The notes under the pieces were generated by a model. It was not told where the DNA came from, ran no database searches, and saw only the letters and a program-made list of their open reading frames with translations. From Marinobacterium litorale DSM 23545 (lineage in GTDB: Bacteria; Pseudomonadota; Gammaproteobacteria; Pseudomonadales; Balneatricaceae), in assembly GCF_000428985.1 (NCBI RefSeq), contig NZ_AUAZ01000034.1, positions 1-44,196 of the forward strand: a stretch of 44,196 nucleotides of DNA, in the 5' to 3' direction. How positions within the stretch are numbered: position 1 is the stretch's first letter; the number at the start of each line of letters is the position of its first letter. The position numbers were made by a program, and so were the translations under genes. Below, piece by piece: positions 13,962-41,611 of this stretch.

Positions 13962-13994
13962 TTTCCTACTACGAATAAGCAATGAATAGACCAA
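13962..13994 (-). promoter_or_regulatory. Sigma-54-type promoter of amtB copy 1 with adjacent dyad
   Basis: On the minus strand TTGGTCTATTCATTGCT gives GG-N10-GC spacing, the -24/-12 pattern of sigma-54 promoters (13977-13994). Immediately downstream lies a dyad that reads TTTCCT-ACT-ACGAAT on the plus strand (13962-13976). It is an imperfect form of the TTTCCY-N3-AGGAAW motif seen at four other promoters in the window. The dyad would cover about -11 to +4. Confidence 0.6.
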
Positions 13995-14152
13995 CTTTGC
14001 GTATACGGCTGTTTTTCAAGGCTTATGGGGAGAAATCAGGGGTTGTCGGGTAAAAACCGTCCCCAAATAGGGGCACTCGAAATTTGCGAGCCCTTTTTAA
14101 GTGCATACGGGTTCTTAGCAGTGAACGGAAAGGGGCGTTTTCAGATATAGAA

Positions 14153-14172
14153 AAAGGCCCCGAAGGGCCTTT
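14153..14172 (-). terminator. Rho-independent terminator after folD
   Basis: AAAGGCCC-CGAA-GGGCCTTT hairpin with A-run on the plus-strand 5' side, i.e. a U-tract for minus transcription. It ends the purU-to-folD operon. The surrounding 33 nt are identical to those of the amtB terminator at 12577-12609. Confidence 0.85.
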
Positions 14173-14208
14173 GATGGAGGGCTTAACGCCGAAAAGGTTT
14201 AAACGTAT

Positions 14209-15069
14209 TCAGGCCGCTTCCATGGCCTCACAGGCTTCCAGTGTATTCTGTAGCAGGCAGGCGATGGTCATCGGTCCAACACCGCCGGGCACGGGCGTAA
14301 TCGCTGCAGCCCGTTCCTTGGCCGTATCAAAGTCCACATCCCCGGCCAGTTTGCCGGTATCCAGGCGGTTGATACCCACATCCAGTACCACGGCACCGGG
14401 CTTGAGCCATTCCCCCTTGATAAACTTCGGAATACCCACGGCGGCGACCACAATGTCGGCGCGCGCCAGCTCGGCTTGCAGATCTTTGGTTTTGGAGTGG
14501 CAGACAGTCACCGTTGCCCGCTCCATCAGCAGTTCCAGAGCAACCGGTCGGCCCACAATGTTAGAGGCGCCGATGATGACCGCATTTTTGCCCATGGGAT
14601 CAATTCCGTAGGCCTTGAGCAGACGCATACAGCCATAGGGTGTGCAGGGCCGCAGTGTCGGTGCTTTTCCGGCCAGGCGCCCCAGGTTATAGGGGTGAAA
14701 ACCATCCACATCCTTGGCCGGATCGATCCGCTCGATCACCGACTGCACCTCAATGTGCTTGGGCAAAGGGAGCTGCACCAGGATGCCGTGAATCTCAGGG
14801 TCGGCATTGAGATCATCGATCAGCGACAACAGATCGCCCTGGGTGGTTTCCACGGCCATCCGGTAGCTGCGCGAGATGAAGCCCACTTCCTCACACGCCT
14901 TCACTTTGCTGCCCACGTAGACCCGGGAGGCGGGATCTTCGCCGATCAATACCACCGCCAGACCCGGAGCCGGCAGCCCCTTTTCAAGGCGAGTTTTCAC
15001 CTGTTCTGCAATTTCTTTGCGTAGGTTGGCCGCTACGGCCTTCCCGTCGATCAGCTGCGCTGTCTCCAC
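14209..15069 (-). CDS. folD: Bifunctional methylene-THF dehydrogenase / methenyl-THF cyclohydrolase
   Basis: A 286-residue cytosolic enzyme that oxidises 5,10-methylene-THF to methenyl-THF and hydrolyses it to 10-formyl-THF. The conserved [14 protein letters not shown] stretch carries the catalytic lysine. [11 protein letters not shown], the cofactor-binding [11 protein letters not shown] and the C-terminal [13 protein letters not shown] are all present at normal spacing. It is the last gene of the N-methylglutamate operon, 79 nt after mgsC. There it takes the methylene-THF released by MgdABCD and passes it on as formyl-THF to PurU, encoded as the first gene of the same run. Confidence 0.97.
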
Positions 15070-15148
15070 AATCGTCTCCTGAGAGTTGAGTCGTTAAGAA
15101 ATAGGCGGGGCGTTTCCCAAGCGGGAAACGCTCCCGAAGCAGACGCGA

Positions 15149-16477
15149 TCAGAAGCCCTGGCCGGGCACCCAGGTGGTACCGGCCAGCGGTACACGGGCC
15201 ATGGCGGCAGACTCAACGGTTAACGCCACCAGATCTTCCGGTTCCAGGTTGCGCAGGTCGTTCTTGCCACAGGCGCGTGCCAGTGTCTGAGCTTCCAGCG
15301 TCAGCACACGCAGGTAGTTAGCCAGACGATGCCCGGCCGCCACCGGATCAAGACGCTTCATCAGCTCCGGATCCTGAGTCGAGATACCGGCCGGGTCTTT
15401 ACCTTCGTGATAATCGTCGTAGAAGCCGGCGGCGGATCCGATCTTTTTAAACTCTTCGTCATACATGGGGTGGTTACAGCCCAGCGCGACCAGCGCAGCG
15501 GTACCAATCGCCACGGCGTCGGCGCCCAGCGCCATGCACTTGGCCACATCGGCACCGTTACGGATACCGCCGGAGACGATCAGCTGTACCTTGCGGTGCA
15601 TACCCATCTCCTGCAGCGCCTGAACGGCCTGCGGAATAGCCGCCAGGGTCGGGATACCCACGTGTTCGATAAACACATCCTGAGTCGCGGCAGTACCGCC
15701 CTGCATGCCGTCAACGACGATGACGTCAGCACCGGCCTTCACCGCCAGTTTTACGTCGTAGTAGGTGCGGGTCGCGCCCACCTTGATGTAGATCGGTACC
15801 TGCCAGTCAGTGATCTCGCGCAGCTCCTGAATCTTGATCGCCAGATCGTCCGGGCCGGTCCAGTCCGGATGACGGCAGGCAGAGCGCTGATCGATCCCCT
15901 TGGGAAGGGTACGCATCTGCGCGACACGGTCGGTGATCTTCTGACCCAGCAGCATACCGCCGCCGCCCGGCTTGGCACCCTGGCCCAGCACCACTTCGAT
16001 GGCATCGGCCTTGCGCAGGTCGTCCGGGTTCATGCCGTAGCGGGACGGCAGGTACTGATACACCAGTTTTTTGGACTGGCCGCGCTCTTCCGGGGTCATG
16101 CCGCCATCACCGGTGGTGGTGGAAGTGCCCACTTCGGAGGCACCACGTCCCAGCGCTTCCTTGGCGTTGGCGGACAGTGCACCAAAGCTCATGCCAGCGA
16201 TGGTGATCGGGATATCCAGCTTGATCGGATTCTTCGCGAAGCGGTCACCGAGTACCACGGAGGTGTTGCACTTCTCGCGGTAACCTTCCAGCGGGTAGCG
16301 CGACATGCTGGCACCGAGAAACAGCAGATCATCAAAATGGGGCAGCTTGCGCTTGGCGCCAAAGCCGCGAATATCGTAGATGCCGGTTTCCGCAGCCCGA
16401 CGAATCTCGTGCATGGTGGTTCGGTCGAAGGTTGCTGATTCACGCAGGCCCGGGTTGACGTTGATATCGTTGCTCAT
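15149..16477 (-). CDS. mgsC: N-methylglutamate synthase subunit C (glutamate-synthase-like FMN domain)
   Basis: A 442-residue protein equivalent to the FMN/synthase domain of GltB (GlxD/MgsC type). With MgsA and MgsB it makes N-methylglutamate from methylamine-derived nitrogen carriers. Conserved blocks include IAGMSFGALSANAKEAL, GEVGTSTTTGDGGM-like ASEVGTSTTTGDGG, GAKPGGGGMLLGQK, KVGATRTYYDVKLAVKAGAD and VSGGIRNGADVAKCMALGADAV. At the place where GltB has three closely spaced 3Fe-4S cysteines, only one (ALGCNHPMYDEE) is visible. A glutamate-synthase-like protein outside the NMG pathway is the alternative, but gene order with gmaS and mgdABCD argues for mgsC. ATG 16477 follows GAGAGG. Confidence 0.92.
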   Translation of the reverse strand: MSNDINVNPGLRESATFDRTTMHEIRRAAETGIYDIRGFGAKRKLPHFDDLLFLGASMSRYPLEGYREKCNTSVVLGDRFAKNPIKLDIPITIAGMSFGALSANAKEALGRGASEVGTSTTTGDGGMTPEERGQSKKLVYQYLPSRYGMNPDDLRKADAIEVVLGQGAKPGGGGMLLGQKITDRVAQMRTLPKGIDQRSACRHPDWTGPDDLAIKIQELREITDWQVPIYIKVGATRTYYDVKLAVKAGADVIVVDGMQGGTAATQDVFIEHVGIPTLAAIPQAVQALQEMGMHRKVQLIVSGGIRNGADVAKCMALGADAVAIGTAALVALGCNHPMYDEEFKKIGSAAGFYDDYHEGKDPAGISTQDPELMKRLDPVAAGHRLANYLRVLTLEAQTLARACGKNDLRNLEPEDLVALTVESAAMARVPLAGTTWVPGQGF

Positions 16478-16501
16478 GATTCAATCCTCTCGCAATCAGG
16501 C

Positions 16502-17185
16502 TTAGTACGCCGAAACGTTGTCGACTTTGAAGTTGTACAGCTGACGGGCCGATCCATAGCGCTTGAACTGGGTCGGATCCTCATCAACACCGGCGCGGTT
16601 CAGGAGTTCGGTCAGCTCGGTAATGTGCTCGTCGCGCATCTCTTTCTCGACGCAGTCGGCACCCAGTGATTTGACGCTGCCCTTCACATAGATGTGCACT
16701 TCGTAGAGGGAGTCGCCCAGTGCGTCCCCGGCATCACCGCACACCACCAGAGAGCCTGCCTGTCCCATAAAGCAGCTCATGTGACCCACGCTGCCTTTAA
16801 CGACGATATCCACGCCCTTCATCGAGATCCCGCAACGCGCACCGGCGTTACCTTCGATCACCAGCAGGCCACCGTGCGCCGTTGCACCCGCCGCCTGGGA
16901 GGCATCGCCTTTAACGCGGACGGTGCCCGACATCATGTTTTCAGCCACGCCCTGGCCGGCGTTGCCGTGAATGGTGACGTGTGCTTTCTGGTTCATGCCC
17001 GCGCAGAAGTAGCCGGCATGGCCCTTGATATCCACAGACAGGTTTTGGTCGATACCGCATGCCAGGTTGTGCTGTCCCTTGGGGTTGAGCACTTCAAATT
17101 CGCGCTCAACGCACTCCGGGCTCTGGTCATGAAGCGCCTGGTTCAGATCGCGGACGGTCGCTTCGCTCAAATCAAAAGTTTTCAT
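16502..17185 (-). CDS. mgsB: N-methylglutamate synthase subunit B (GltB beta-helix domain)
   Basis: A 227-residue protein matching the C-terminal GXGXG beta-helix domain of glutamate synthase (GlxC/MgsB). Repeated turns such as GHAGYFCAGMNQKAHVTIHG, GNAGQGVAENMMSG, GDASQAAGATAHGG and GNAGARCGISMKG form the right-handed helix. I chose ATG 17185 because GAGGAG is eight bases upstream; an ATG at 17191 lies only two bases after it. It lies 12 nt from mgsA and 24 nt from mgsC. It has no known catalytic residues and is structural in the synthase complex. Confidence 0.92.
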   Translation of the reverse strand: MKTFDLSEATVRDLNQALHDQSPECVEREFEVLNPKGQHNLACGIDQNLSVDIKGHAGYFCAGMNQKAHVTIHGNAGQGVAENMMSGTVRVKGDASQAAGATAHGGLLVIEGNAGARCGISMKGVDIVVKGSVGHMSCFMGQAGSLVVCGDAGDALGDSLYEVHIYVKGSVKSLGADCVEKEMRDEHITELTELLNRAGVDEDPTQFKRYGSARQLYNFKVDNVSAY

Positions 17186-17197
17186 TGTCATCTCTCC

Positions 17198-18100
17198 TCA
17201 GGCACTGCGTTCCCAGACATAGAAGGTGGCCGGTTCCGGCTCCCAGACCTTGGCGTTTTCGATCCCCGGCAGGGTGGTCAACGCCTGATATTCCGAAGCC
17301 ATGGCGACGTAATCGTCCGTCTCGGCCAGCACCGCCGGTTTACAGGCGATCGGATCACGCATCACCGCAAACCCGTTGCGCGTGCCGATGGTGAAGGTGA
17401 AGAAGCCATCCAGATCTTCCAGCGCATGTTCCAAAGCGACTTTCAGGCTGTCGCCCTGGCGCAGACGCCAGGTCAGGTAACCCGCGGCCACTTCTGAGTC
17501 GTTCTCGGTCTCGAAGGTGATGCCTTCACGCTTGAGGTTTTCGCGCAGACGGTTGTGGTTGGACAGGGAGCCGTTGTGCACCAGACACAGGTCCATGCCG
17601 GTGGAGAACGGGTGGCTGCCCTCCATGGTCACGGCTGACTCGGTGGCCATGCGGGTATGGCCAATGATGTGACTGCCCTTCATGTTTTTCAGGTTGAACT
17701 TGGCGGCGATCTTCTCCGGCAGGCCCACCTCTTTCAGAATCTCGATCGACTGACCCACACTCAGGATCAGCACGTCCGCCGCACTCTCTGCCATCCAGTC
17801 ACGGATGGTCTGTTCGTCGGAGCCCACCTTGAATACAGTGACGTTGGCGTTCTGCATCCAGGTCAGTTCAACACGCAGCTGATGGCGCAGGGTGTCTGCC
17901 AGCGCTTCCCAGTCGTAGTTTTCATCAGGGTGGCGCAGGGTCAGCTTGGTCCAGCCATCGCCAACCTCATCCCCGTAGATGGCAAAGCCTGCACTGTCGG
18001 GACCGCGCTCCGTCATGGCGATCAACATCGGCTCGAACAGCTCGCCAATACGGCTCTCCAGTTCAGGGTTCTTCAAGTAAAGTCCAACGATTCCACACAT
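17198..18100 (-). CDS. mgsA: N-methylglutamate synthase subunit A (class II glutamine amidotransferase domain)
   Basis: A 300-residue Ntn-type amidotransferase domain (GlxB/MgsA). Translation starts at ATG 18100, so removal of Met exposes the nucleophile Cys in MCGIVGLYLKNPE; GAGGAT precedes it. A longer frame upstream would bury that Cys and is not used. Other conserved parts are the TERGPDSAGFAIYG loop, the HTRMATESAVTMEGSHPF block and the LVHNGSLSNHNRLR oxyanion region. In the N-methylglutamate pathway the domain is thought to handle gamma-glutamylmethylamide rather than glutamine, supplying methylamine to MgsBC. It lies directly after gmaS in the same operon. Confidence 0.93.
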   Translation of the reverse strand: MCGIVGLYLKNPELESRIGELFEPMLIAMTERGPDSAGFAIYGDEVGDGWTKLTLRHPDENYDWEALADTLRHQLRVELTWMQNANVTVFKVGSDEQTIRDWMAESAADVLILSVGQSIEILKEVGLPEKIAAKFNLKNMKGSHIIGHTRMATESAVTMEGSHPFSTGMDLCLVHNGSLSNHNRLRENLKREGITFETENDSEVAAGYLTWRLRQGDSLKVALEHALEDLDGFFTFTIGTRNGFAVMRDPIACKPAVLAETDDYVAMASEYQALTTLPGIENAKVWEPEPATFYVWERSA

Positions 18101-18159
18101 AATTTTATCCTCTTGCCGGGCGCGCCCGGCTTCACACATTCACGCAGCCAGATGCTGAA

Positions 18160-19494
18160 TTAGAAAAACTCGGCGTAATGCTTCAGTTCCCAGTCGGAAA
18201 CATGGCGGCTGTACTCAACCCATTCAGCCCGCTTCACCTTGATGAACTCGGAGACGATCTCCTTACCCATCTTCTCGGTAAACAGGGTGTCCGCTTCCAG
18301 CGCATCCAGCGCTTCGTTCAGGTTCTGCGGCAGGATACTGACGCCCTTCTCCTTGATCTCTTCCAGGCTCAGACTGTACAGGTTCATATTCATCGGCTCA
18401 CCCGGATCCAGCTCACGCTCGATACCATCCAACCCGGCGGCGATCAGTGCCGCATGGACCAGGTAGGGGTTGCAGCCGGAGTCCGGCAGACGGAATTCCA
18501 GACGGCCGTAGGGCACGCGAACCATGGCTGAGCGGTTGTTGTCGCCGTAGCAGACGTAGGCCGGGGCCCAGGTCGCACCGGAGGCGTTACCGCCTACCAC
18601 GAGGCGCTTGTAGGAGTTGACGGTCGGCGCGGAGAAGGCGCAGATCGCATCGGCGTGGGCCAGGATGCCGGCGGTGAAGTGGTACGCCATTTTGGACAGG
18701 CCCATGCCGTTCTTGTCGGTTGCGTCATGGAACAGGTTTTTGCCTGACTCATCGGTGATCGACAGATGGAAATGCATGCCGTTGCCGGTCCGGTCGGAGG
18801 CAGGCTTGGGCATAAAGGAGCAGACCATGCCCAGCTTGTTGGCGATCTCACCGGCGGCCATGCGCACAAACGTAAACCGGTCGGCCGAGGTCAGCGCATC
18901 GCTATAGGTGTAGTTGATCTCGAACTGGCCGTTGGCGTCCTCGTGGTCGATCTGGTAGACATCGAAATCCACTGCCTGGAGAGATTCAACCAGCTGCTCC
19001 AGGAACTCACGGGAGCGGGACAGCCCCTTGTAGTCGTAGCAGGGTTTGTCCAGCACGTCGCTCTCATCCACCGGTGTCAGCGAACCATCTTCGGCACGGT
19101 TGAACAGTGAGAACTCGGGCTCCAGGCCGGTGTTCAGGGTCCAGCCGCGCTGGCTCAGCTTGTCCAGCTGGTTTTTGAGCACCACACGGGAGCAGTAGGG
19201 GTGCGGTTCGTTATTGACGTAACCATCGCAGGCGATGCGGGCATAGCCCGGCTGCCAGGGTACGGCGCTGAGTGTATTCAGGTCACCACGGGCCATGAAG
19301 TCAGGGCCGTGGGGCTCCATGCCCAGTCCCCAGACGGCAAATCCTGCGAATCCGGCACCGCTCTCGACCACCGAGTTCAGGCAGTTGGCCGGAACCGACT
19401 TGGTCTTGGCAACACCGTGGATGTCGACGAACTGGGCCAGGATGTACTTGATGTCGTTCTGGCTGAGGAAACGGTCAATCTCTGCGGGCATCAT
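18160..19494 (-). CDS. gmaS: Gamma-glutamylmethylamide synthetase (glutamine-synthetase family)
   Basis: A 444-residue ATP-dependent ligase joining methylamine to glutamate. It has the glutamine-synthetase fold: an N-terminal beta-grasp ([14 protein letters not shown]), the metal and glutamate site at GLEPEFSLF and [37 protein letters not shown], and the ATP-side [20 protein letters not shown]. Length and the E-x-N-GQ-x-E pattern fit GmaS rather than the longer housekeeping GlnA. The start ATG 19494 overlaps the mgdD stop (ATGA) and follows AAAGGAGG. Together with mgsABC and mgdABCD on either side it identifies the monomethylamine N-methylglutamate pathway. A gamma-glutamyl-polyamine synthetase is the main alternative by family, but context argues against it. 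Confidence 0.94.
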
Positions 19495-20003
19495 AGTGCA
19501 CCTCCTTTGGTTAAGTCTTTGCCACCCAGTTCGCGGACCAGGGTGCTGAAAATTTCACTTAGGTAATGGTCGTAACCGGCATCAAAACCGATCATCAGAG
19601 CACCGCCTTGCTGTTCTCGATAAAGCCAGCAGTTCACACCGGCCACCGATGCCATCAGCCAATCGCCGGGCTGCATCTTGCGGAAGTCGAACTGGCACAG
19701 CTGTAACATCAGCTCAATCCACCCCTCACCCTGCACCACGAGGACGCGGTCGTTGCGGGGGAAGCACCATTCGCAGCCAGCCCACTCTTGCCCGACGGGG
19801 ACAAACGCCATGTACTCGTCGGTCCCGGTACGTGCGACCAGCGCTCCGTTCAGTTCCAGGGCCGTTAGTTGCGATTGAGGCAAAGGCAGTCCCGATCCGG
19901 CCAGCGCCTCTGCACTGACGGGACCGGTAAGCAGGTAACCGCTCAGATCGTCACGGGCACTCAGGCTCAGGTTGCTCATCTCGGGTGAAGCATTAGCATT
20001 CAT
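19491..20003 (-). CDS. mgdD: N-methylglutamate dehydrogenase subunit D (SoxG-like)
   Basis: A 170-residue protein of the heterotetrameric sarcosine oxidase gamma-subunit family, here a subunit of N-methylglutamate dehydrogenase. Sequence is weakly conserved, as usual for this subunit; a recognisable part is CLYREQ-like [25 protein letters not shown] near the C-terminus. I chose ATG 20003, whose first base is shared with the mgdC stop (TGATG), instead of a start 66 bases upstream inside mgdC. The downstream gmaS start overlaps its stop by four bases, so the three genes are translationally coupled. Confidence 0.88.
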
Positions 20004-22948
20004 CAGGCCACCTCCGTCAGGTCGGCTGTCTGGCGTGCGCCATCGGCGTCGTAAAAAGGTGTCGCGCAAGGCTCGATGGCAACAAAGGCCCCGCTATCGA
20101 CTTTCACCTGCATCGGCACGTTGGCATCGGCCAGTGGCAGATCCACCATCGCCAGACCGATGATCCGGCCCAGAGACGGGCTATAGGCGATACTGGTAAT
20201 ACGCCCGGAGATCTCGCCGTCCTGAATAATCAGGTGACACTCTTTCGGCATTTCACTGCTGCTCTTTGGAGAGAATCCCTGCGGCAGACGGAACCCGATC
20301 AAGCGGCGCTCGCAGCTGTTTTTCAGGCGTGCCAGTGAGGGCTTGCCGGTGAACCAGGGCTTGCTCTTGAGCGGCACCGCCCAGCTCATATTGGCTTCGA
20401 ACGGGTTGGTCAGGCCGTCGGTATCCTGGCCCACGATGATGTGGCCCTTTTCCAGTCTCAGTACGCGCTGCGCCTCGACACCGAAGGGGCGGATCGCATG
20501 GGCAGAACCGACGTCCATCAGTTTTTCCCAAACTTCCAGCGCTGCATTAGCCGGCAGGTGAATCTCGTACCCCAGCTCACCGACAAAACCGACCCGGATC
20601 AGACGTACGGGATAGCCAAGCAGAGTGCCTTCGCGCATGCCCAGGTAGGGAAAGCTCTCTTCACTGAGATCCACATCGGTCAGTGCGCTCAGCACCTTGC
20701 GTGATGCAGGTCCCGCCAGGTTCATGGCCGCCAGCGAGCCGGTCAGGTTGGCCAAACGGACGTTGAGACCCAGTTCCTGAATTTTCAGCGACAGGGTTCT
20801 GAACGCAGCGGCGGCGTGGCTGGTGGTGGCAGTGACGTAGAAGCGGTCTTCGGCGATACGACCGACGATACCGTCATCGATGATCACGCCGCTGTCATCC
20901 ACCGCCAGGGCATAACGGGTCATACCGATTTTGATGGTGGACATCTTCATGGTGTACACCACATCCAGCAGTCGGCCCGCATCCGGGCCCATCACCTCGA
21001 TCTTGCCCAGCGTGGAGACATCGATCAGGCCAAGACCGCTACGCACCGCCTGTACTTCCTGCACAATCGACTGCTCACGCTGAGCCGCCGTGACTGCCCC
21101 CGCCGCCGTGCTCGGTGCATAGAACTCAGGACGCTGCCACTGACCGGCTTCCATCATCCGGGCACCATGTTTCAGATGCCACTGATGCATCGGGGTCAAC
21201 CGCTCCGGGCGGAACCGTCGCCCTGCCAGCGCACTGACCGGCACCGGGTGGAACATGGGGCGGGCCGTGGTTGAACCGGTCTCGTCGATGGTTTTACCGG
21301 TGACAGACGCCAGTACCCGGATGCCGTTCATGTTGGAATGTTTACCCTGACTCGGGCCCATTCCATTGGTGGAGAAGCGCTTCATCAACTCGATGTTGTC
21401 GAAGCCCTCTTTGGCGGCATTGATCAGGTCCTTAAGCTGGAGATCCTCATCGATATCCAGGAAGTTCTTGCCCTTGGGGTGACCGATAATCGGCCAGGGG
21501 TGACTGTGTGACTGAGTATCGCGATGGACAGTGAGCTCACTGACGACCGCTTCCCCACGCAGTTGCGCAAGCGCTTCCCGGGCTGCGCGACTGCCATCAG
21601 CCAGACGCTGCTCCAGCGTGAAGGCGCCATTGAGACGCCCGCAGGCATGGATTCCTTGGGGCAGCTCACGGGGCAAAATCTGCTCGGCCTGGCTGGCATA
21701 TCCCAGCTTGGCACCGGCCTGGTAGAGCATCTGGGCGGCAGGCGCCCAACCCACACTCATCAGCAGCAGATCGCAGGGAATCACATGGCTCTTGCCGGCG
21801 TCGCATCCCTTGCCATTAAACGGCGCAACCACCACGGCGCTAAGCGCGCCTTTGCCCTGGGCTTCGTAGATTGCGCTGTGATCCAGCACAGTTATACCCT
21901 GAGCCTGGACCTGCTTGGCCCACTCACCGCGTTTGCCCACCCGTTCCAGATCGACAACGGCGGCAACCTCAACCCCGGCTGCGATCAAATCCAGCGCGGC
22001 GCGGTATCCTTCATCGTTACCGCAGAGTACGACGGCACGCTGACCGGGTTTAACGGCATAGCGGGCAATCAAACGCTGGGCGGCGGAAGCCAGCATCACG
22101 CCGGGCAGATCGTTGTTGCGAAACACCGACGGCTGTTCCATAACGCCGGTGGCCATAATCACCTGCTCGGCGCGCATTTTGGTGATGCCTTCGGGGCCTA
22201 CCAGCGGCACATAGTGGTCGGTATACCAACCGGCTGCATAATGGGCTTCCATCAATCGAATCTTGGCGTTGTTACTGATCCGGCTTTTCAGATCGGCACG
22301 CACCTTCGCCGCCGCTTCCTCATTGGCGAGCTGGTAATCGAGGCTGCCGCCGATACGCGGATTCTCATCCACCAACACCACGTCGGCACCTGCTTCTGCA
22401 GCGCTTAAGGCTGCCTGCATGCCGCTAGGTCCGGCACCGATCACCAGAACTTCGCTAAAGCCGTAGCGCTTGGGCTGCCGGGTAGCGCTCCAGCTGGTAT
22501 TGATCTCACCGAGCCCGGCCTTTTCGCGGATCAGACGTTCCCAGTACGGGAAAAACTTTTTCGGTTTGTGGAACGTCTTGTAATAGAAGCCCACCGGCAG
22601 AAACCGGGACAGCAAACCGATATAGCGGTCTTTATCGTTGGCCAGGGTACCGTTGACGTTACAGGCGCGCAGATCCACTCCCTCACTGACCGGCGTTACA
22701 TCACCGCGAATATTGGTGGCGTCACTGCTTTGGAACAGGGCGTTAACGTCATGGTTGGCCATCGACAACACACTGCGCGGACGGTGGTATTTAAAACTGC
22801 GTCCGAGCAGCTTCTGCCCCCCGGCCAGCAATGCAGAGGTCAGGCTATCGCCGGAAAAACCGGAAAAGGTCTGGCCTTCAAAGCGGAAGCTGACCGACTC
22901 ACTGCGGTCGATCCACTCCAGCGGTTGGGGATCAAGCCGGAATTTCAT
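20003..22948 (-). CDS. mgdC: N-methylglutamate dehydrogenase subunit C (SoxA-like, THF-binding)
   Basis: A 981-residue alpha-type subunit related to heterotetrameric sarcosine oxidase. Residues about 15-95 form a ferredoxin-like domain (FEGQTFSGFSGDSLTSALL, SFKYHRPRSVLSM). A dinucleotide-binding domain follows with VLVIGAGPSGMQAALSAAEAGADVVLVDENP at about 165-195, then a second nucleotide-binding part. The C-terminal third is a GcvT-like folate-binding domain (GLIDVSTLGKIEVMGPDAGRLL, GYEIHLPAN). It oxidises N-methylglutamate and transfers the methyl carbon to THF as methylene-THF. I chose ATG 22948 with GAGGAG upstream; it overlaps the end of mgdB by 17 nt. Confidence 0.95.
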   Translation of the reverse strand: MKFRLDPQPLEWIDRSESVSFRFEGQTFSGFSGDSLTSALLAGGQKLLGRSFKYHRPRSVLSMANHDVNALFQSSDATNIRGDVTPVSEGVDLRACNVNGTLANDKDRYIGLLSRFLPVGFYYKTFHKPKKFFPYWERLIREKAGLGEINTSWSATRQPKRYGFSEVLVIGAGPSGMQAALSAAEAGADVVLVDENPRIGGSLDYQLANEEAAAKVRADLKSRISNNAKIRLMEAHYAAGWYTDHYVPLVGPEGITKMRAEQVIMATGVMEQPSVFRNNDLPGVMLASAAQRLIARYAVKPGQRAVVLCGNDEGYRAALDLIAAGVEVAAVVDLERVGKRGEWAKQVQAQGITVLDHSAIYEAQGKGALSAVVVAPFNGKGCDAGKSHVIPCDLLLMSVGWAPAAQMLYQAGAKLGYASQAEQILPRELPQGIHACGRLNGAFTLEQRLADGSRAAREALAQLRGEAVVSELTVHRDTQSHSHPWPIIGHPKGKNFLDIDEDLQLKDLINAAKEGFDNIELMKRFSTNGMGPSQGKHSNMNGIRVLASVTGKTIDETGSTTARPMFHPVPVSALAGRRFRPERLTPMHQWHLKHGARMMEAGQWQRPEFYAPSTAAGAVTAAQREQSIVQEVQAVRSGLGLIDVSTLGKIEVMGPDAGRLLDVVYTMKMSTIKIGMTRYALAVDDSGVIIDDGIVGRIAEDRFYVTATTSHAAAAFRTLSLKIQELGLNVRLANLTGSLAAMNLAGPASRKVLSALTDVDLSEESFPYLGMREGTLLGYPVRLIRVGFVGELGYEIHLPANAALEVWEKLMDVGSAHAIRPFGVEAQRVLRLEKGHIIVGQDTDGLTNPFEANMSWAVPLKSKPWFTGKPSLARLKNSCERRLIGFRLPQGFSPKSSSEMPKECHLIIQDGEISGRITSIAYSPSLGRIIGLAMVDLPLADANVPMQVKVDSGAFVAIEPCATPFYDADGARQTADLTEVA

Positions 22949-23213
22949 AGTGCGGCTCCTCGTAACGAACTTCACTGGCGTCCACCTGGCCGATAATCTG
23001 GTCGGTCAGCGTGTCGCGTTCGAAAATAAACCAGCGTCCGGTGGGACGGTGATACCAGCGTTCCCGCAGAACTCCGGGCGCTCCGTTACGGTTAAAAACG
23101 TAATCAGCCCAGGTGGACTCGTCGGCATCGGACGGCGGTATGCGGATTTCACCGAGGTAGTCGAACTCGGTGATAGGACGTTTGCCGATGTCGGCACAAT
23201 CAAGCAGTTTCAT
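22932..23213 (-). CDS. mgdB: N-methylglutamate dehydrogenase subunit B (SoxD-like)
   Basis: A 93-residue delta-type subunit that tightens the dehydrogenase complex. SoxD features are visible: MKLLDCADIGKRPITEFDYL, ADYVFNRNGAPGVLRERWYH and FERDTLTDQI. Compared with the zinc-binding SoxD pattern (two N-terminal Cys, then His and Cys), this protein keeps C6 and H55 but has Ile at position 9 and no Cys after the His, so the zinc site looks lost. AAGGAGG is six bases before ATG 23213. It lies 11 nt after mgdA and overlaps mgdC. Confidence 0.92.
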   Translation of the reverse strand: MKLLDCADIGKRPITEFDYLGEIRIPPSDADESTWADYVFNRNGAPGVLRERWYHRPTGRWFIFERDTLTDQIIGQVDASEVRYEEPHYEIPA

Positions 23214-23224
23214 GACCCGCCTCC

Positions 23225-24466
23225 TTAGTGACCGACCGACGCCGCGCCCTTCTCGCCGACCAGATCGAAGTCGGCAAAACGGGACAGTCGGAAGGGTTCA
23301 ATCAATTCGTGGGTTTTGTCGTTGGCAACGGTCCAGGCCATGGTCTTACCGCTGACCGGGGTTGCCTTGAAGCCCCAGGTGCCCCAACCAGCATCCAGGT
23401 AGAAGCCGTCGATGGGGGTTTTACCCATGATCGGCGCAAAGTCCGGGGTGATATCGGACATACCGGCCCATTGACGCATCACTTTCATGCGGCTCATGAA
23501 CGGAAACAGATCCAGCATCTGGTCGGTAAGCCCCTCGACAAAGTCGAAGCTGGAGCGGGTGGAGTGCAGCACCGACGGGTCTACGGATGCCCCCATCACC
23601 ATCTCACCGCGGGACGACTGGCTGACGTAGACATGCAGGCTGCCGGAGACCACGATGGTGTCCATGAACGGCTTCACAGGCTCCGATACACAGGCCTGCA
23701 ACGGGAAGATCTCGATCGGCGTACGCAGCCCCAGCATGCTGGTGATGCGCGGGGTGGAACCGGCTACCATGGAGATCACCTTGTTGCAGCTGATCTGACC
23801 GCGGTCGGTATCGACACCCACTACCTTGTCGCCCTGGGTGCGAATGGCGGTAACACGGGTTTTCTGGTGGATCTCGACACCGCGGTTGTAAGCACCACGA
23901 GCATAGCCCCAGGCCACCGCGTCGTGACGGGCCACTGAACCGGGGGCGTGATAGAGCGCTCCCATTACCGGCGCGTGCCCTGCGCAGTCCATGTCCATGT
24001 AAGGTACGGCTTTGGCGATCTCTTCACGCCCGACCACCTCACTCTCGATACCCTGGTGCTTGTTCACCTCGGCACGCCAGCGCATGGTGCGCAGCGCACT
24101 GTCGGTGTGGGCCAGCGTGAAGTGACCACGGGTGGAGTAGAAGATATTCAGATCGAAGTCATCGGCCAGGTCCTCGAACAGCTTGAGGCTGGTGTCGTAG
24201 AACTTCACACCTTCCGGGGTCAGGTAGTTGGAACGCACAATGGTGGTATTACGGCCGGTGTTGCCACCGCCGATATACCCCTGCTCCAGCACAGCCACGT
24301 TGGTGATGCCGTGCTCCTTGGCCAGGTAGTAGGCGCACGCCATACCGTGACCGCCACCACCGATGATGACGACATCGTAGTGGGACTTGAGCGGTTTTGC
24401 TTCGGGGAAGAAACGCGGTTCGTCATGCGTACTCTTCAAACCGAATTTAAGTAAACGCCAGGGCAT
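23225..24466 (-). CDS. mgdA: N-methylglutamate dehydrogenase subunit A (SoxB-like flavoprotein)
   Basis: A 413-residue FAD-dependent oxidoreductase of the sarcosine oxidase beta-subunit type. The Rossmann motif IIGGGGHGMACAYYLA lies at about residues 34-49, followed by EQGYIGGGNTGRNTTIVRSNY, the region that holds flavin in this family, and GSVARHDAVAWGYARGA near the expected covalent-flavin histidine. The C-terminal DAGWGTWGFKATPVSGKTMA block closes the FAD site. It removes the methyl group of N-methylglutamate and passes electrons and the C1 unit through MgdC. It lies 17 nt after purU, as the first mgd gene of the operon. Confidence 0.95.
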   Translation of the reverse strand: MPWRLLKFGLKSTHDEPRFFPEAKPLKSHYDVVIIGGGGHGMACAYYLAKEHGITNVAVLEQGYIGGGNTGRNTTIVRSNYLTPEGVKFYDTSLKLFEDLADDFDLNIFYSTRGHFTLAHTDSALRTMRWRAEVNKHQGIESEVVGREEIAKAVPYMDMDCAGHAPVMGALYHAPGSVARHDAVAWGYARGAYNRGVEIHQKTRVTAIRTQGDKVVGVDTDRGQISCNKVISMVAGSTPRITSMLGLRTPIEIFPLQACVSEPVKPFMDTIVVSGSLHVYVSQSSRGEMVMGASVDPSVLHSTRSSFDFVEGLTDQMLDLFPFMSRMKVMRQWAGMSDITPDFAPIMGKTPIDGFYLDAGWGTWGFKATPVSGKTMAWTVANDKTHELIEPFRLSRFADFDLVGEKGAASVGH

Positions 24467-24483
24467 TATTTATCTCCGGGAGC

Positions 24484-25356
24484 TTAAGCGAAAACGACGG
24501 TCTTGTTGCCATACACCAAGACGCGATCTTCGATATGGAAACGCAGGCCTCGTGCCAACACCGCCTTCTCCACATCCTTACCCAGGCGGACCATGTCCTT
24601 GGTGGTGTTGTGATGGGTCACGCGCTGCACGTCCTGCTCGATGATCGGACCGGCGTCGAGCTCGGAGGTCACGTAGTGACAGGTCGCACCGATCTGCTTC
24701 ACACCCCGCTCGGCCGCCTGATGGTAGGGGCGAGCACCGATGAAGGAGGGCAGGAAGCTGTGATGAATATTGATGATCTTGTTCGGGTAGGTCTCACAGA
24801 GCTCTTCCGGAATGATCTGCATGTATTTCGCCAGTACGATCACATCGGCATCGGCAGCAGCGATCTGTTCACGCACGGCCTGGAAGTGAGGCTCTTTATT
24901 GCTCATATCCACTGGCACGTGGATATAGGGGATGCCATGCCACTCCACGTAGGAGCGCAAGTCATCGTGATTGGAGATGACACAGGGGATATCGATGTTG
25001 AGTTCGCCAGAGCGCCACCGATACAGGAGATCCGACAGGCAGTGCGCTTCCTTGGATACCATCAGAACCGCACGTTTGCGCTGCGCCGAGTCGGTGATAT
25101 TCCAGGTCATGCCGAACTTATCAGCCAGCGGTGCAAATTTCTCTTTCAGCGTCTCCAGATCGAACGGCAAGGAATCCGCGACCACTTCATAGCGCATAAA
25201 GAAGGTACACTGTTCGGAGTCAGCAAACTGATGTGCTTCGCTGATCCAGCCCTTGTATTCCGAGATAAACTGAGTGACCGCTGACACGATACCGATGGTA
25301 TCAGGGCAGGAAATAGAGATACGAAAACGTCGGGTGTTGTTGGGGTCAAGAGCCAT
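24484..25356 (-). CDS. purU: Formyltetrahydrofolate deformylase
   Basis: A 290-residue enzyme hydrolysing 10-formyl-THF to formate and THF. An N-terminal ACT domain (RISISCPDTIGIVSAVTQFI) is followed by the formyltransferase-like catalytic domain. Catalytic residues lie in INIHHSFLPSFIGARPYHQA and the SELDAGPIIEQD motif. I chose ATG 25356 (AGGTGG five bases upstream) over a GTG nine bases earlier. It leads the minus-strand operon purU-mgdABCD-gmaS-mgsABC-folD. It regenerates free THF for MgdC, Tdm and DmmD and releases formate for energy. A candidate sigma-54 promoter lies about 47 nt upstream. No formate dehydrogenase is in the window. Confidence 0.96.
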   Translation of the reverse strand: MALDPNNTRRFRISISCPDTIGIVSAVTQFISEYKGWISEAHQFADSEQCTFFMRYEVVADSLPFDLETLKEKFAPLADKFGMTWNITDSAQRKRAVLMVSKEAHCLSDLLYRWRSGELNIDIPCVISNHDDLRSYVEWHGIPYIHVPVDMSNKEPHFQAVREQIAAADADVIVLAKYMQIIPEELCETYPNKIINIHHSFLPSFIGARPYHQAAERGVKQIGATCHYVTSELDAGPIIEQDVQRVTHHNTTKDMVRLGKDVEKAVLARGLRFHIEDRVLVYGNKTVVFA

Positions 25357-25369
25357 CTTTGCCACCTAT

Positions 25370-25494: not shown

Positions 25495-25509
25495 TTTCCT
25501 GACAGGAAT
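25495..25509. promoter_or_regulatory. Operator-like dyad in the purU/dmmD divergent region
   Basis: TTTCCT-GAC-AGGAAT, among the best copies of the recurring TTTCCY-N3-AGGAAW dyad. It lies in the middle of the 458-bp purU/dmmD gap, away from either -12 element, so it may be an auxiliary site for looping. The rest of the gap holds promoters and further partial dyads at 25694-25708 and near 25761-25775, and no gene. Confidence 0.5.
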
Positions 25510-30874: not shown

Positions 30875-30990
30875 TGGTTCATCCTCATATGCAACACAGA
30901 ATTAGTCATGCGCTACACCAGAAAACCTTCAAAACGGATGAAGCATTTACTGAGTAGCGCCTGTTGTTTATTTCTTTAAACGAATTATTA

Positions 30991-31023
30991 TTTCCCATCA
31001 GTAAAGGCAATCCATGTGCCAAA
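30991..31023 (-). promoter_or_regulatory. Sigma-54-type promoter of amt copy 2 with adjacent dyad
   Basis: On the minus strand TTGGCACATGGATTGCC is nearly the sigma-54 consensus with GG-N10-GC spacing (GC at 31007-31008). Directly downstream is a dyad that reads TTTCCC-ATC-AGTAAA on the plus strand (30991-31005). This is the strongest -24/-12 element in the window. Confidence 0.75.
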
Positions 31024-38933: not shown

Positions 38934-39953
38934 TCAGTTTGCCGGATCGAATTGAGACAACCACTCAACCACCATCGGGTGGTATCGGCTCAATCCCTTA
39001 TACTCGATCAGTTGCTCAGGCAGACTCTTCATCACCCGATGCATCCGCTTGGCCCACTCCGGGTTGGTTACCAGATCTTCAAGGCTGATCAGGTAGGTGC
39101 GAATGCTGAACATCAAGGCGTTGCTGCGCGGCATGCGATCCAGAACCTGCAGCTCAACACGCAGATGCACTTTCTCACCCACGTTTTCCGGCGTCACACT
39201 CGCCCGATCCGTACCCCACATGGGGTAGGTTTCCGGTGAGGTATCCATCCGCGCATTCACAGTCAGAGTCCAGTTCAAGCGGCGTACGGGACGCCCCTGG
39301 GGAATGGCACAGAGATACTTCAAGGCACGATCAAAAATACCCATCTCATGCGCCATAGGTACCGGCCCATGCCAATCTTTGAAACTCATGCCGGCATCGA
39401 AGGCCAGTGACCAGTCGGCCGGGCAGGTTACGATCCCCGCATCCAGAAACAGATCACCATCCCGTTGATCGAGCAGTGCAAAATCGCCCTGAACCTGGCG
39501 ACCGATGTATTCCATCGGCGGCAACGGCAGCGTGCTGCTATCACCAAACACAAAACTGTCTTTAAGATTCAGCAGTTTGTTTTCCCAAGTCCAGTTATCG
39601 CCCTCTTTGGTCAGGGCGAAATACTCCGGGTAGTCATTGGAGAAGCTCTCCATCACGCGCTCGATCATATCCCAACAGGCCAGATCCATATGGGGCATGG
39701 CCAGACAGCGTTTGGGATTTTCCTCAAGTACCAGGCCGCGCTCATGCATCTCGGACAGGTAGTGCTCATCAATATCGAGCAGATGTTCATACACCGAGCC
39801 TTCAGGCCCCGGCGTCACGTGGGGCTCGATGTTTACCGAGTACATATATTCGTCTTCCGGGAAGGGAAACGGAAAACGCGCTATCGCCCCGGGGCTGTTG
39901 GAGTAGGTAAAGTCATCACGGAAACTTTGAATCGGTTTGGGTGCCATTCTCAT
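38934..39953 (-). CDS. dmmC: Dimethylamine monooxygenase haem subunit (DUF3445/HODM-alpha type)
   Basis: A 339-residue protein of the haem-dependent oxidative N-demethylase family (DUF3445), with a PAS-like haem-binding fold. It catalyses the oxidative demethylation of dimethylamine to methylamine and formaldehyde, using electrons from the reductase encoded just upstream. Conserved-looking parts include RCLAMPHMDLACWDMIERVM, FLDAGIVTCPADWSLAF, FKDWHGPVPMA and RLNWTLTVNARMD. The exact haem ligand is not assigned here. AGGAG is nine bases before ATG 39953. The gene order A-B-C in transcription direction matches the naming of dmmABC in marine bacteria; the letter assignment is from that order. 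Confidence 0.85.
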   Translation of the reverse strand: MRMAPKPIQSFRDDFTYSNSPGAIARFPFPFPEDEYMYSVNIEPHVTPGPEGSVYEHLLDIDEHYLSEMHERGLVLEENPKRCLAMPHMDLACWDMIERVMESFSNDYPEYFALTKEGDNWTWENKLLNLKDSFVFGDSSTLPLPPMEYIGRQVQGDFALLDQRDGDLFLDAGIVTCPADWSLAFDAGMSFKDWHGPVPMAHEMGIFDRALKYLCAIPQGRPVRRLNWTLTVNARMDTSPETYPMWGTDRASVTPENVGEKVHLRVELQVLDRMPRSNALMFSIRTYLISLEDLVTNPEWAKRMHRVMKSLPEQLIEYKGLSRYHPMVVEWLSQFDPAN

Positions 39954-39964
39954 GGGGCTAACTC

Positions 39965-40915
39965 CTAAAGATCGATAACCAGACGTTTGCCTGCGGCACG
40001 AGAGACACAGGGCATTATGCTTTCGCCCTGTTCACGCTCTGCAGCGGACAGAAATTCATCGCGATGCTCCACATCGCCGGACAGCACACGGGTCTGGCAC
40101 TGGCCACAAACACCACCCCGACAGAGGTTGGGCACCTGGACCTGAGCGCCTTCCAGCACCTCCAGCAGGGAGCTGTCCGCATCGACATTCAGCGTCACTC
40201 CGCTGCGGGCCAGCTCCACCTCAAACGGGTTGCCCGGCTGAGGCGCGGCAAAAGCCTCATAGTGGATATGGCTCTCGGGCCAGCCCAGTGACTGAGCAAC
40301 TTCATGTACACCGGCAATCAACGTTTCAGGCCCGCAGATATAAACGTGTGTACCCCGGGGCTGATCGGCCAGCAATGTGCCCAGTTCACAGCGGTTACCC
40401 GCTTCGGAGTCATACAGGAAACAACGCTCACCCAGCGTCTGTTCAAGCTGTTCACGGTAAGCACCGGTGCTGGAGCTGCGATAGAGGTAATGCAGCTCAA
40501 AGTTGGCGCCACGGCGTTCCAGCTCTGGCAAATAGGACATAAAGGGCGTAATACCCACGCCACCGGCCACCAGCAGGTGCTTACGGGCGCTCCAGGCCGG
40601 AGAAAACAGGTTGGCAGGCGGTGTAATCGAGAGTTCATCCCCCACCGCCACCGACTCATGCATGTAGATAGACCCACCGCGCGAGGTCTCCTGGCGTCGC
40701 ACGGCAATTCGGTAACTGCCGGATTCTCTTGGATCGCTCAGTAAGGAATAGGCGTTGCGGTGAGGCCGGGGCTCGGCAGGCATCTCCACCACCACATGAG
40801 AGCCGGGTGAAAATGGCAGAAGCTCACCGCCCACAGGCGCTAACGTAAATTCCCGAATCGCCGGAGCAACCTCGGCGATGGCGGTTACCCGAACTTGAAT
40901 CGTATCAATACTCAT
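39965..40915 (-). CDS. dmmB: Dimethylamine monooxygenase reductase subunit (PDR/VanB type)
   Basis: A 316-residue NAD(P)H oxidoreductase. The flavin-binding part has RNAYSLLSDPRESGSYRIAV (about residues 53-72), the NAD-binding part has VAGGVGITPFMSYL (117-130) and YICGPETLI (192-200), and the C-terminal [2Fe-2S] domain uses C265, C270, C273 and C303. It feeds electrons to the haem subunit. Its ATG 40915 shares a base with the dmmA stop (TGATG), and its stop lies 11 nt before dmmC. It is a separate gene from the Rieske reductase at 4424-5410, though of the same family. Confidence 0.88.
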   Translation of the reverse strand: MSIDTIQVRVTAIAEVAPAIREFTLAPVGGELLPFSPGSHVVVEMPAEPRPHRNAYSLLSDPRESGSYRIAVRRQETSRGGSIYMHESVAVGDELSITPPANLFSPAWSARKHLLVAGGVGITPFMSYLPELERRGANFELHYLYRSSSTGAYREQLEQTLGERCFLYDSEAGNRCELGTLLADQPRGTHVYICGPETLIAGVHEVAQSLGWPESHIHYEAFAAPQPGNPFEVELARSGVTLNVDADSSLLEVLEGAQVQVPNLCRGGVCGQCQTRVLSGDVEHRDEFLSAAEREQGESIMPCVSRAAGKRLVIDL

Positions 40916-41463
40916 CAGACCAGCTCCTCTGTTTCCGGGATATCCGCAGGGTCTTCCGCGTTTATCTGCACGCCAACGTAGGCACCGTGCAACTTGGAGT
41001 AGTGATCACGCACCAAAAGCAGCCGGCCACAACCGGAGCATGCATGCGGGGAATAGGTGACCTCTTCGGTAATCGCGTAACAGTGAGTACAAAAGAGCCG
41101 CCGCTTATTGCTCTCCGGCGCAAGCAGCTGAATCTGCTCAGACGCCAGCCCGGCTTTTTCAGCCAGATTGTGGACATCCCAAAGGAACCCTTCGTCACCG
41201 GCGACATAGACAGCGCTGGCCAGTGGCAGTGCATTGATGACCACGTCCAACTCTGACAGCGAACCGCACTCTGTGCCCAGGTCGGTGACTTCAGGTTTCC
41301 CGAACAGATAGAGCGCCTTCTCTCCTTTTGGAGCGGCTTCATAAAGGGACCGGATGCGTGACAGACTCTGCGCGGTCGACACGAAAAGGTGTTTTTGAGT
41401 GTTGGGACGCAGCGAGACCTCGGTGTAGGTCGGTCTGCTTTTGATCAAAGGCTCGTCTGGCAT
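40915..41463 (-). CDS. dmmA: Dimethylamine monooxygenase subunit DmmA (zinc-ribbon protein)
   Basis: A 182-residue soluble protein. The N-terminal part (about residues 25-120) resembles a reductase-like alpha/beta domain (LYLFGKPEVTDLG, LASAVYVAGDEGFLWDVHNLAEKAGL). The C-terminal part is a zinc ribbon with C125-x2-C128 and C142-x2-C145 in LFCTHCYAI and HACSGCGRLL. DmmA-like proteins with such a C-terminal ribbon accompany the haem and reductase subunits and are needed for activity. AGGAGG precedes ATG 41463. It is the first gene of the operon and follows a candidate sigma-54 promoter 130 nt upstream. Confidence 0.82.
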   Translation of the reverse strand: MPDEPLIKSRPTYTEVSLRPNTQKHLFVSTAQSLSRIRSLYEAAPKGEKALYLFGKPEVTDLGTECGSLSELDVVINALPLASAVYVAGDEGFLWDVHNLAEKAGLASEQIQLLAPESNKRRLFCTHCYAITEEVTYSPHACSGCGRLLLVRDHYSKLHGAYVGVQINAEDPADIPETEELV

Positions 41464-41558
41464 AGGGAGTCCTCCTATATCCTCGAGTTAAAGGACATTC
41501 ACTGGGGAAATCAGCCCGATCAAGGATCCCAATTGGCCTTGAACGGATGGATCTTATA

Positions 41559-41611
41559 TTTCCTGCAGAGATACATAATTTCTTTTCAGGAAAGGCAATT
41601 TGCGCACCAAA
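41559..41611 (-). promoter_or_regulatory. Sigma-54-type promoter of dmmABC with two dyads
   Basis: On the minus strand TTGGTGCGCAAATTGCC has GG-N10-GC spacing (GC at 41595-41596). Directly downstream is the dyad TTTCTT-TTC-AGGAAA as read on the plus strand (41579-41593). A second, partial copy TTTCCT-GCA-GAGATA (41559-41573) lies exactly 20 bp further on, about two helical turns. Confidence 0.65.

What the first reader, a model, noticed from the sequence alone, without database searches (positions are those of the whole stretch)
13962..41611. Five sigma-54 promoters each followed by the same dyad
GG-N10-GC elements precede amtB1 (13977-13994), the purU operon (25402-25420), dmmD (25725-25741), amt2 (31006-31023) and dmmABC (41594-41611). 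In each, a dyad of type TTTCCY-N3-AGGAAW begins 0-2 nt past the -12 GC: 13962-13976, 25390-25404 (weak), 25741-25755, 30991-31005 and 41579-41593. It would cover about -11 to +4, where the sigma-54 holoenzyme opens DNA. A repressor here would act as a gate on nitrogen-controlled activation. I know of no described regulon with this layout in methylamine degraders.
Basis: partly seen in the sequence, partly recalled or inferred. Interest (0 to 1): 0.85.

Follow-up and report, generated by a model that had tools for sequence, protein, structure and literature searches.

The report
Tandem repressor sites on sigma-54 promoters
In a marine bacterium that feeds on methylated amines, five promoters of the nitrogen-controlled type carry the same pair of binding sites right where transcription should start, very probably for one neighbouring repressor protein, and related bacteria keep the layout.

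Summary
The composite recurs before purU/mgdA, gmaS, dmmA, dmmD and amt genes in Marinobacterium, Nitrincola, Marinomonas, Oceanobacter, some halomonads, Halochromatium and Pseudomonas. A model trained without Marinobacterium ranks four of the five sites top in the 4.38-Mb genome; amtB1 is found only in part. Of 60 family genomes, 18 have the composite: exactly the 18 with gmaS, and 18 of the 19 with the XRE-cupin gene. That gene lies by pathway genes in 75 of 80 loci, including beta- and cyanobacterial ones. In cyanobacteria, where sigma-54 was not found (0 of 9), weaker sites with the same 20-bp step lie on a sigma-70 -35 box.

Best reading: an XRE-cupin repressor of the N-methylglutamate pathway, bound as two dimers over the start site, blocks NtrC/sigma-54 initiation until a methylamine-derived signal releases it. 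Binding, repression, activator and signal are inferred. HutC is a precedent: new variant of a known kind.

The parts
41854..42498 (+). XRE-cupin regulator gene (214 aa; HTH_3 plus Cupin_2), the likely binder of the dyads
   Evidence: Pfam HTH_3 1.2e-11 and Cupin_2 4.2e-14; co-occurs with composites
41793..41807 (.). perfect single dyad in front of the XRE-cupin gene (likely autoregulation)
   Evidence: dyads upstream of the gene in many relatives
41594..41610 (-). sigma-54 element of dmmABC
41579..41593 (.). dyad 1 of dmmABC
41559..41573 (.). dyad 2 of dmmABC, 20 bp past dyad 1
41674..41721 (-). two NtrC-like sites upstream of dmmABC (41674-41690 and a weaker one 41705-41721), tentative
   Evidence: consensus recalled when scored, later seen in a passage of PMC12977541
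25404..25420 (-). sigma-54 element of the purU-mgd-gmaS-mgs operon
25390..25404 (.). dyad 1 of purU (weak)
25370..25384 (.). dyad 2 of purU (stronger)
25495..25509 (.). perfect dyad 105 bp upstream of purU dyad 1; similar spacing in relatives where the XRE-cupin gene lies there
25725..25741 (+). sigma-54 element of dmmD
25741..25755 (.). dyad 1 of dmmD (perfect to WTTCCTNNNAGGAAW)
25761..25775 (.). dyad 2 of dmmD
31006..31022 (-). sigma-54 element of amt2
30991..31005 (.). dyad 1 of amt2
30971..30985 (.). dyad 2 of amt2
13978..13994 (-). sigma-54 element of amtB1
13962..13976 (.). dyad 1 of amtB1
13942..13956 (.). dyad 2 of amtB1 (weakest)
14209..25365 (-). presumed target operon: purU, mgd-type (sarcosine-oxidase-like) genes, gmaS, mgsABC, folD
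   Evidence: Pfam; gene names from family and literature, not from activity; co-transcription not tested
38934..41463 (-). presumed target operon dmmABC (DmmA-like, reductase, HODM_asu-like)
   Evidence: Pfam
25815..26954 (+). presumed target gene dmmD (GCV_T family)
   Evidence: Pfam
29546..30874 (-). presumed target gene amt2 (ammonium transporter family)
   Evidence: Pfam
12628..13929 (-). presumed target gene amtB1 (ammonium transporter family)
   Evidence: Pfam

Best explanation
The dyads are operators of the XRE-cupin protein encoded at 41854-42498, the local repressor of the N-methylglutamate/dimethylamine pathway. Two dimers sit 20 bp (about two helical turns) apart on one face of the DNA, cover about -11 to +24, and so stop sigma-54 RNA polymerase from settling on, melting or leaving the promoter even when nitrogen limitation has switched the enhancer-binding protein (probably NtrC) on. 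A pathway metabolite, probably beyond methylamine (gamma-glutamylmethylamide or N-methylglutamate are natural candidates), binds the cupin domain and lifts the block: an AND gate of nitrogen need and substrate presence. Shown by sequence: promoter elements, tandem dyads, their conservation and co-occurrence with the gene, and rpoN and ntrC genes in the genome. Inferred: binding, repression, cooperativity, NtrC as activator, the ligand.
For: (1) 46 composites in the window plus 80 relatives' loci; the nearest known gene downstream is gmaS, purU, dmmA, mgdA or amt2 in 41 of 41 outside the window and a pathway or amt gene in 5 of 5 in it. Around 903 sigma-54-like sites, dyads scoring 9.5 or more of 12 pile up at offsets 20 (17), 0 (14), 21 (12) and 1 (9), against a mean of 0.46 per offset over 180 offsets. 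(2) In 39 aligned composites the two dyads are 20 bp apart without a gap in 39 of 39, while the GC-to-dyad-1 distance varies (0: 22, 1: 16, 2: 1). Arms hold 1.16-1.34 bits per column on average, the N3 centres 0.15-0.21. (3) A model from 26 rows without Marinobacterium finds purU, amt2, dmmABC and dmmD as the four best places of the 4.38-Mb genome (E 1.6e-10 to 6.0e-4). (4) Of 60 family genomes, 18 have the composite at E<=1e-4; all are among the 19 with the XRE-cupin gene, and they equal the 18 with gmaS at 74% identity or more. Eight of the 18 share no contig length with any training locus. (5) The XRE-cupin gene has a pathway gene within the held flanks in 75 of 80 loci; the presumed recognition helix is largely conserved in 81 sequences. 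(6) In 14 cyanobacterial loci the facing promoter has TTGACA in 14 of 14, with an AGGAAA-type half-site (5 or 6 of 6) at the 20-bp step in 12 of 14; sigma-54 found in 0 of 9 such genomes. (7) XRE-cupin proteins of P. aeruginosa are repressors of neighbouring genes, with palindromic sites (PMC7901475, passages). (8) The genome has rpoN and one NtrC above the family cut-off.
Against: No binding, footprint, transcript-start or mutant data. gmaS and the XRE-cupin gene occur together almost always, so co-occurrence alone cannot say which product reads the dyad. All composite rows, including the held-out ones, were picked with a dyad consensus first read in this window. The held-out model finds amtB1 only in part (E 0.14). 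By equal contig length at least nine of the 18 composite genomes are records behind the training loci, and our own is one too; two of the accepted matches are partial (G001 lacks the -24 part; G300 lacks dyad 2). Five of 41 loci lack a full composite (L038, L041, L044, L045, L048), and 0 of 39 loci with XRE-cupin at 61% identity or less have one (4 partial matches at E<=1). Of 24 divergent loci among those 39 that were tested, 18 have no dyad of 10 or more of 12. Cyanobacterial tandem sites are weak as dyads (mostly 7.5-9.5 of 12), and of 10 beta-/other loci only 2 (L065, L070) show the half-site at the same step. NtrC-like sites are only moderately enriched (37 of 46 upstream against 15 of 46 in a downstream control reach 15 of 21).
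Confidence: 0.77

Rival explanations
1. The dyads are sites of the XRE-cupin protein, but it acts as an activator or co-activator (or in both ways), for example by bending the start region to help opening.
For: Position does not exclude helper roles; in Ruegeria pomeroyi the master regulator of the same pathway, TmaR, activates tdm and the later genes and mildly represses tmm (PMC13390433, abstract, results and discussion read).
Against: Sites lie over the start of sigma-54 promoters and, in cyanobacteria, over a TTGACA -35 box, where bound protein should exclude polymerase. Studied XRE-cupin proteins are repressors. TmaR is AraC-type.
Confidence: 0.1
2. The dyads are read by another protein, for example the LuxR-type response regulator at 35027-35725.
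For: That regulator is in the same cluster, and dyads alone do not name their reader.
Against: Relatives of it at 61-80% identity appear in 4 of 80 loci (L016, L019, L033, L048; a fifth, L037, at 28%), while composites occur in loci where none is seen, such as L020-L024 and L028-L031. The XRE-cupin gene itself has the dyad upstream in many loci. Flanks are 10 kb at most, so absence from those genomes is not shown.
Confidence: 0.06
3. The dyads are fortuitous: T-rich sequence after -12 elements and A+T-rich start regions resemble TTTCC/GGAAA, and conservation reflects kinship of orthologous promoters.
For: sigma-54 -12 elements are often followed by T (recalled); many aligned promoters are orthologous; with one mismatch allowed the motif has 19 places in the genome against 13 for the reversed control.
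Against: Five promoters of different genes in one genome share the tandem pair; the 20-bp step holds in 39 of 39 rows while the centres vary; a held-out model ranks four of five window sites top in the genome; the pair persists in L041 without GG-N10-GC.
Confidence: 0.03

Closest known systems
HutC repression of the NtrC/CbrB-activated sigma-54 hutU promoter in Pseudomonas
   Same: Local repressor of a nitrogen-yielding catabolic operon whose protected region overlaps the sigma-54 site; NtrC supplies nitrogen control; urocanate, a pathway intermediate, lifts binding; higher-order oligomers at hutU (PMC12977541 and PMC8871633, passages).
   Different: HutC is of another family (GntR, recalled) with site TGTA-N2-TACA; no 20-bp tandem dyads placed just past the GC at five promoters of one regulon were described in the passages seen.
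XRE-cupin repressors of Pseudomonas aeruginosa (PsdR, PauR, ErfA and others)
   Same: Domain architecture, targets next to their own gene, palindromic motifs, inhibitor role in optional metabolism (PMC7901475, passages).
   Different: sigma54 and RpoN have 0 occurrences in that paper's main text; a methylamine regulon was not in the passages seen. The letters of its motifs were not seen.
TmaR/TmoR control of trimethylamine catabolism in Ruegeria pomeroyi
   Same: Same pathway (tmm, tdm, dmmDABC, gmaS-mgs, mgd), coordinated induction, effector beyond monomethylamine (PMC13390433, abstract, results and discussion read).
   Different: AraC-type activator and GntR-type repressor; the words XRE, cupin and sigma54 have 0 occurrences in the main text.

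Membership tests
sigma-54 (RpoN) dependent promoter | GG-N10-GC with -24/-12 context TGGC-N8-TTGCW | tested here: met
   Scores 29-33 of 34 for all five (weights recalled)
sigma-54 (RpoN) dependent promoter | Genome encodes sigma-54 and enhancer-binding proteins | tested here: met
   PF04552 E 3.6e-71; NtrC TIGR01818 773.9 bits, over cut-off
sigma-54 (RpoN) dependent promoter | Transcription start about 12 bases past the GC | not testable with these tools
   No transcript data
NtrC-regulated promoter | GCACCA-N3-TGGTGC-like sites upstream | tested here: inconclusive
   Best window sites 15.5-16.5 of 21; 37 of 46 upstream against 15 of 46 downstream reach 15 (weights recalled)
XRE-cupin transcription factor | N-terminal HTH_3 and C-terminal cupin | tested here: met
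   best solved-structure match by sequence, 1y9q, aligned over the HTH
XRE-cupin transcription factor | Palindromic operator near its own gene and local targets | tested here: inconclusive
   Candidate dyad 41793-41807 and five local promoters by sequence; binding not shown
XRE-cupin transcription factor | Represses its targets | not testable with these tools
   Needs a deletion strain
HutC-type repressor over a sigma-54 promoter | Operator overlaps the sigma-54 footprint | tested here: met
   dyad 1 begins 0-2 nt past the GC, by sequence
HutC-type repressor over a sigma-54 promoter | HutC protein and its site TGTA-N2-TACA | tested here: not met
   Protein is HTH_3/cupin; operator TTTCCT-N3-AGGAAA
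TmaR regulon | AraC-type regulator in the cluster | tested here: not met
   No AraC-type HTH among the 38 window ORFs scanned, of 84 listed; the only AraC-named match is a weak AraC_binding cupin match inside the XRE-cupin protein

The most novel reading that the evidence does not exclude
One XRE-cupin regulator family governs the N-methylglutamate methylamine pathway across Gammaproteobacteria, Betaproteobacteria and Cyanobacteria. Its rigid 20-bp tandem operator is a portable module: mounted on the -35 box of a sigma-70 promoter in cyanobacteria without sigma-54, and mounted immediately past the -12 element of NtrC/sigma-54 promoters in gammaproteobacteria. That turns a plain substrate switch into a nitrogen-AND-substrate gate for a whole regulon, with a third in-phase site 105 bp upstream (ten helical turns) in some promoters suggesting a repression loop.
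Probability: 0.42. Interest if true: 0.78.

Novelty: new variant of a known kind. Interest (0 to 1): 0.62.

Why it matters
Methylated amines are an important marine nitrogen source, and the one master regulator of this pathway that my searches turned up is the AraC-type activator TmaR of Ruegeria. This points to a different regulator in gammaproteobacteria and, more loosely, in beta- and cyanobacteria, with exact operators that can be tested at the bench. It also offers a repeated natural case of a repressor placed on the opening region of sigma-54 promoters, a class usually discussed in terms of activation, and perhaps of one operator module used with two sigma factors.

Tried and rejected
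A generic sigma-54 consensus scan with up to 3 mismatches is uninformative alone: 53 matches against 76.7 expected, so GG and GC were used as fixed anchors and dyads scored apart. The first comparison script used a too strict sigma-54 pattern and printed one site only; repeated with a scored element. The idea that -12 element and dyad are one inseparable motif was rejected: distances vary 0-2, L041 has the tandem dyads without GG-N10-GC, and cyanobacteria have related sites without sigma-54. Regulon members outside the window were looked for: the only other place listed in the own genome is C5:5326-5361 at E 0.16-0.77, near palindromes with a 2-base centre between genes that read like sdaA and gcvT; not counted. 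Two of the 41 family genomes without the XRE-cupin gene gave weak matches (G003, G043; E 0.008-0.009; L127, L128) without a close pathway gene downstream; treated as background. Structure prediction and fold searches were not run: Pfam gave the domains, and a monomer model would not test tandem binding. Dropped rows: 7 of 46 composites (L018, L022, L026, L035, L043, L052, L054) left out of alignment A1 as near-duplicates; 13 more (five window sites; L016, L017, L019 twice, L020, L021, L023, L033) left out of the held-out alignment A2. One of the 67 composites (an extra one in L022, dyad 1 at 6.5) looks spurious.
Full report
What was claimed and what is there. The window is contig C31 of a 4.38-Mb genome of a Marinobacterium-like bacterium; the nearest relative found for its XRE-cupin protein is in M. 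lacunae at 90% identity. The cluster holds purU, mgd-type sarcosine-oxidase-like genes, gmaS, mgsABC, folD, two ammonium transporters, dmmD, dmmABC, a flavin monooxygenase (tmm), eutBC and an XRE-cupin regulator (38 of 84 listed ORFs scanned; names by family). All five sigma-54-like elements and all five dyads exist at the stated places, the elements within two bases.

The missed half. Each promoter carries a second dyad 20 bp beyond the first: 13942-13956, 25370-25384, 25761-25775, 30971-30985 and 41559-41573. Dyad-2 scores sum to 45.0, above every one of 200,000 draws of five from 8,042 intergenic positions (maximum 38.5). This explains the 'weak' purU site: its partner is the stronger one.

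Conservation. Eighty loci around relatives of the XRE-cupin gene were kept, of 98 found. In these and the window, 903 sigma-54-like sites were scored; dyads of 9.5 or more of 12 concentrate at offsets 20 (17 sites), 0 (14), 21 (12) and 1 (9), next -34 (5) and -35 (3), mean over 180 offsets 0.46. Of these, 46 are composites with both dyads. Outside the window the nearest downstream pathway gene is gmaS in 22, purU in 10, dmmA in 6, mgdA in 2 and amt2 in 1 of 41, within 400 bases in 41 of 41. In 39 of the 46 as aligned (7 near-duplicates dropped), the two dyads are 20 bp apart in 39 of 39, and the GC-to-dyad distance is 0 in 22, 1 in 16, 2 in 1. Arms carry 1.16-1.34 bits per column, N3 centres 0.15-0.21, the sigma-54 spacer 0.26. 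Rows were selected by offset and by a consensus read in this window, which favours such a result.

Model tests. A sequence model from all 39 rows finds exactly the five window sites in the own genome at E<=1.1e-5, as it must. A model from the 26 rows outside Marinobacterium and Nitrincola tapanii gives purU 1.6e-10, amt2 3.8e-9, dmmABC 3.0e-5 and dmmD 6.0e-4 as ranks 1-4; amtB1 appears only through its dyads (E 0.14). So four sites are confirmed by held-out rows and the fifth weakly. In 60 family genomes the 39-row model hits 18 at E<=1e-4; the XRE-cupin protein is found in 19 of 60, including all 18; gmaS at 74% identity or more is found in exactly those 18. The nineteenth, G010, has the XRE-cupin gene but neither gmaS at that level nor the composite. 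By equal contig length, at least nine of the 18 are records behind training loci, and our own makes ten; the other eight (G001, G005, G028, G029, G041, G042, G052, G054) are new, one of them (G001) with a partial match. Of 28 loci fetched by that search from other genomes, a capped part of its rows, the 26 at E<=1e-4 have a pathway gene just downstream and the 2 at E 0.008-0.009 do not. Among 369 genomes of the class, 10 have gmaS at E<=1e-180; of the 9 other than our own, 8 have an XRE-cupin relative. Three of these 8 (56-66% identity) have the composite at E<=1e-4 (G300 only sigma-54 plus dyad 1); the other 5 (48-53%) and the one without XRE-cupin do not. In the fetched loci, 36 of 41 with XRE-cupin at 63% or more have a full composite at E<=1e-4, against 0 of 39 at 61% or less.

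Who reads the dyad. A pathway gene is within the held flanks in 75 of 80 loci (69 with gmaS, mgs or mgd); the five without are L038, L044, L045, L063 and L093, the last two at contig edges. The gene has the dyad in front of itself in the window (41793-41807) and in many relatives. In 81 sequences the presumed recognition helix keeps S57, G59, M60, S62 and E65 at 100%, while 58 (Q or R) and 61 vary. In 24 divergent loci without composites (beta-, cyanobacterial and other), 6 have a dyad of 10 or more of 12 in the shared intergenic region, against 0.28 expected and at most 2 in 300 shuffled sets; 18 do not. In 14 cyanobacterial loci the operon facing the gene has TTGACA in 14 of 14 with a -10-like hexamer (up to 3 mismatches allowed) 17-18 bp on, and in 12 of 14 an AGGAAA-type half-site ends a degenerate dyad exactly 20 bp upstream of one that starts with that TTGACA; of 10 beta- and other loci only L065 and L070 show this. 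Sigma-54 was not found in 9 of 9 cyanobacterial genomes tested, and was found in 4 of 4 betaproteobacterial and 5 of 5 gammaproteobacterial ones (completeness of the fetched ones not told). In Marinomonas sp. MED121 (L041) the tandem dyads remain but no GG-N10-GC precedes them. The dyads therefore seem to belong to the regulator, not to the sigma factor.

Mechanism. With the GC at -13/-12, dyad 1 covers about -11 to +4 and dyad 2 about +10 to +24. Two dimers on one face of the helix over the start region would block polymerase; XRE-cupin proteins of P. aeruginosa are local repressors with palindromic motifs (PMC7901475, passages). Nitrogen control would come from NtrC: the genome has ntrC and rpoN, and NtrC-like sites are moderately enriched upstream (37 of 46 against 15 of 46 downstream). 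The ligand is unknown; cupin residues H155, E159 and H193 are conserved in 99-100% of 81 sequences. In R. pomeroyi the inducer of the same pathway is a catabolite beyond monomethylamine (PMC13390433), which makes gamma-glutamylmethylamide or N-methylglutamate reasonable guesses.

A third site. In 12 of 67 distinct composites a dyad of 10 or more of 12 lies 103-106 bp upstream of dyad 1 (about ten helical turns), and in 6 at 34-36 bp. In the window it is the perfect dyad 25495-25509 before purU, although the XRE-cupin gene is not there; L114 is a second such case. It may be a remnant of the regulator's own operator or part of a repression loop.

Known or new. A local repressor over an NtrC/sigma-54 promoter is known from HutC (PMC12977541, passages; PMC8871633, passages). 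XRE-cupin repressors are known. I found no paper tying an XRE-cupin protein to methylamine genes or to sigma-54 promoters; searches, open-access library only, seen as listings except the papers named here and PMC12565409, PMC12316311 and PMC5520151 (passages). Hence new variant of a known kind.

Noticed in passing
window 25495-25509: Perfect dyad kept 105 bp upstream of purU dyad 1 although the regulator gene is not divergent there in this genome; spacing of 104-106 bp is seen where it is (L019, L020-L022, L024, L027).
   Followed up: partly
L041:9674-9710 (minus strand): Marinomonas sp. MED121 keeps the 20-bp tandem dyads upstream of gmaS but shows no GG-N10-GC; a TTGTAT-N17-TATCCT sigma-70-like element (read by eye) stands instead.
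   Followed up: partly
own genome C5:5267-5280 and 5336-5349 (L106): Between genes that read like sdaA and gcvT lie TTTCCTATAAGAAA and TTTCCTATAGGAAA, with a 2-base centre, similar to but distinct from the operator here; possibly another XRE-type site in glycine metabolism.
   Followed up: no
window 33832-36498: A histidine kinase, LuxR-type response regulator and PAS protein next to the flavin monooxygenase (tmm, 36671-38038), before which no composite was found; a separate control of the first step is likely.
   Followed up: no
L038, L044, L045 and genome G010: Nitrincola schmidtii-type genomes keep an XRE-cupin gene (69-72% identity) although G010 has no gmaS match at E<=1e-100 and no composite; an orphan regulator or another target.
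   Followed up: no
L067, L071, L074, L077-L081, L084, L087, L091: Cyanobacterial records carry mgd-gmaS-mgs clusters, several with purU, facing an XRE-cupin gene: a methylamine pathway that looks shared with proteobacteria by transfer.
   Followed up: partly
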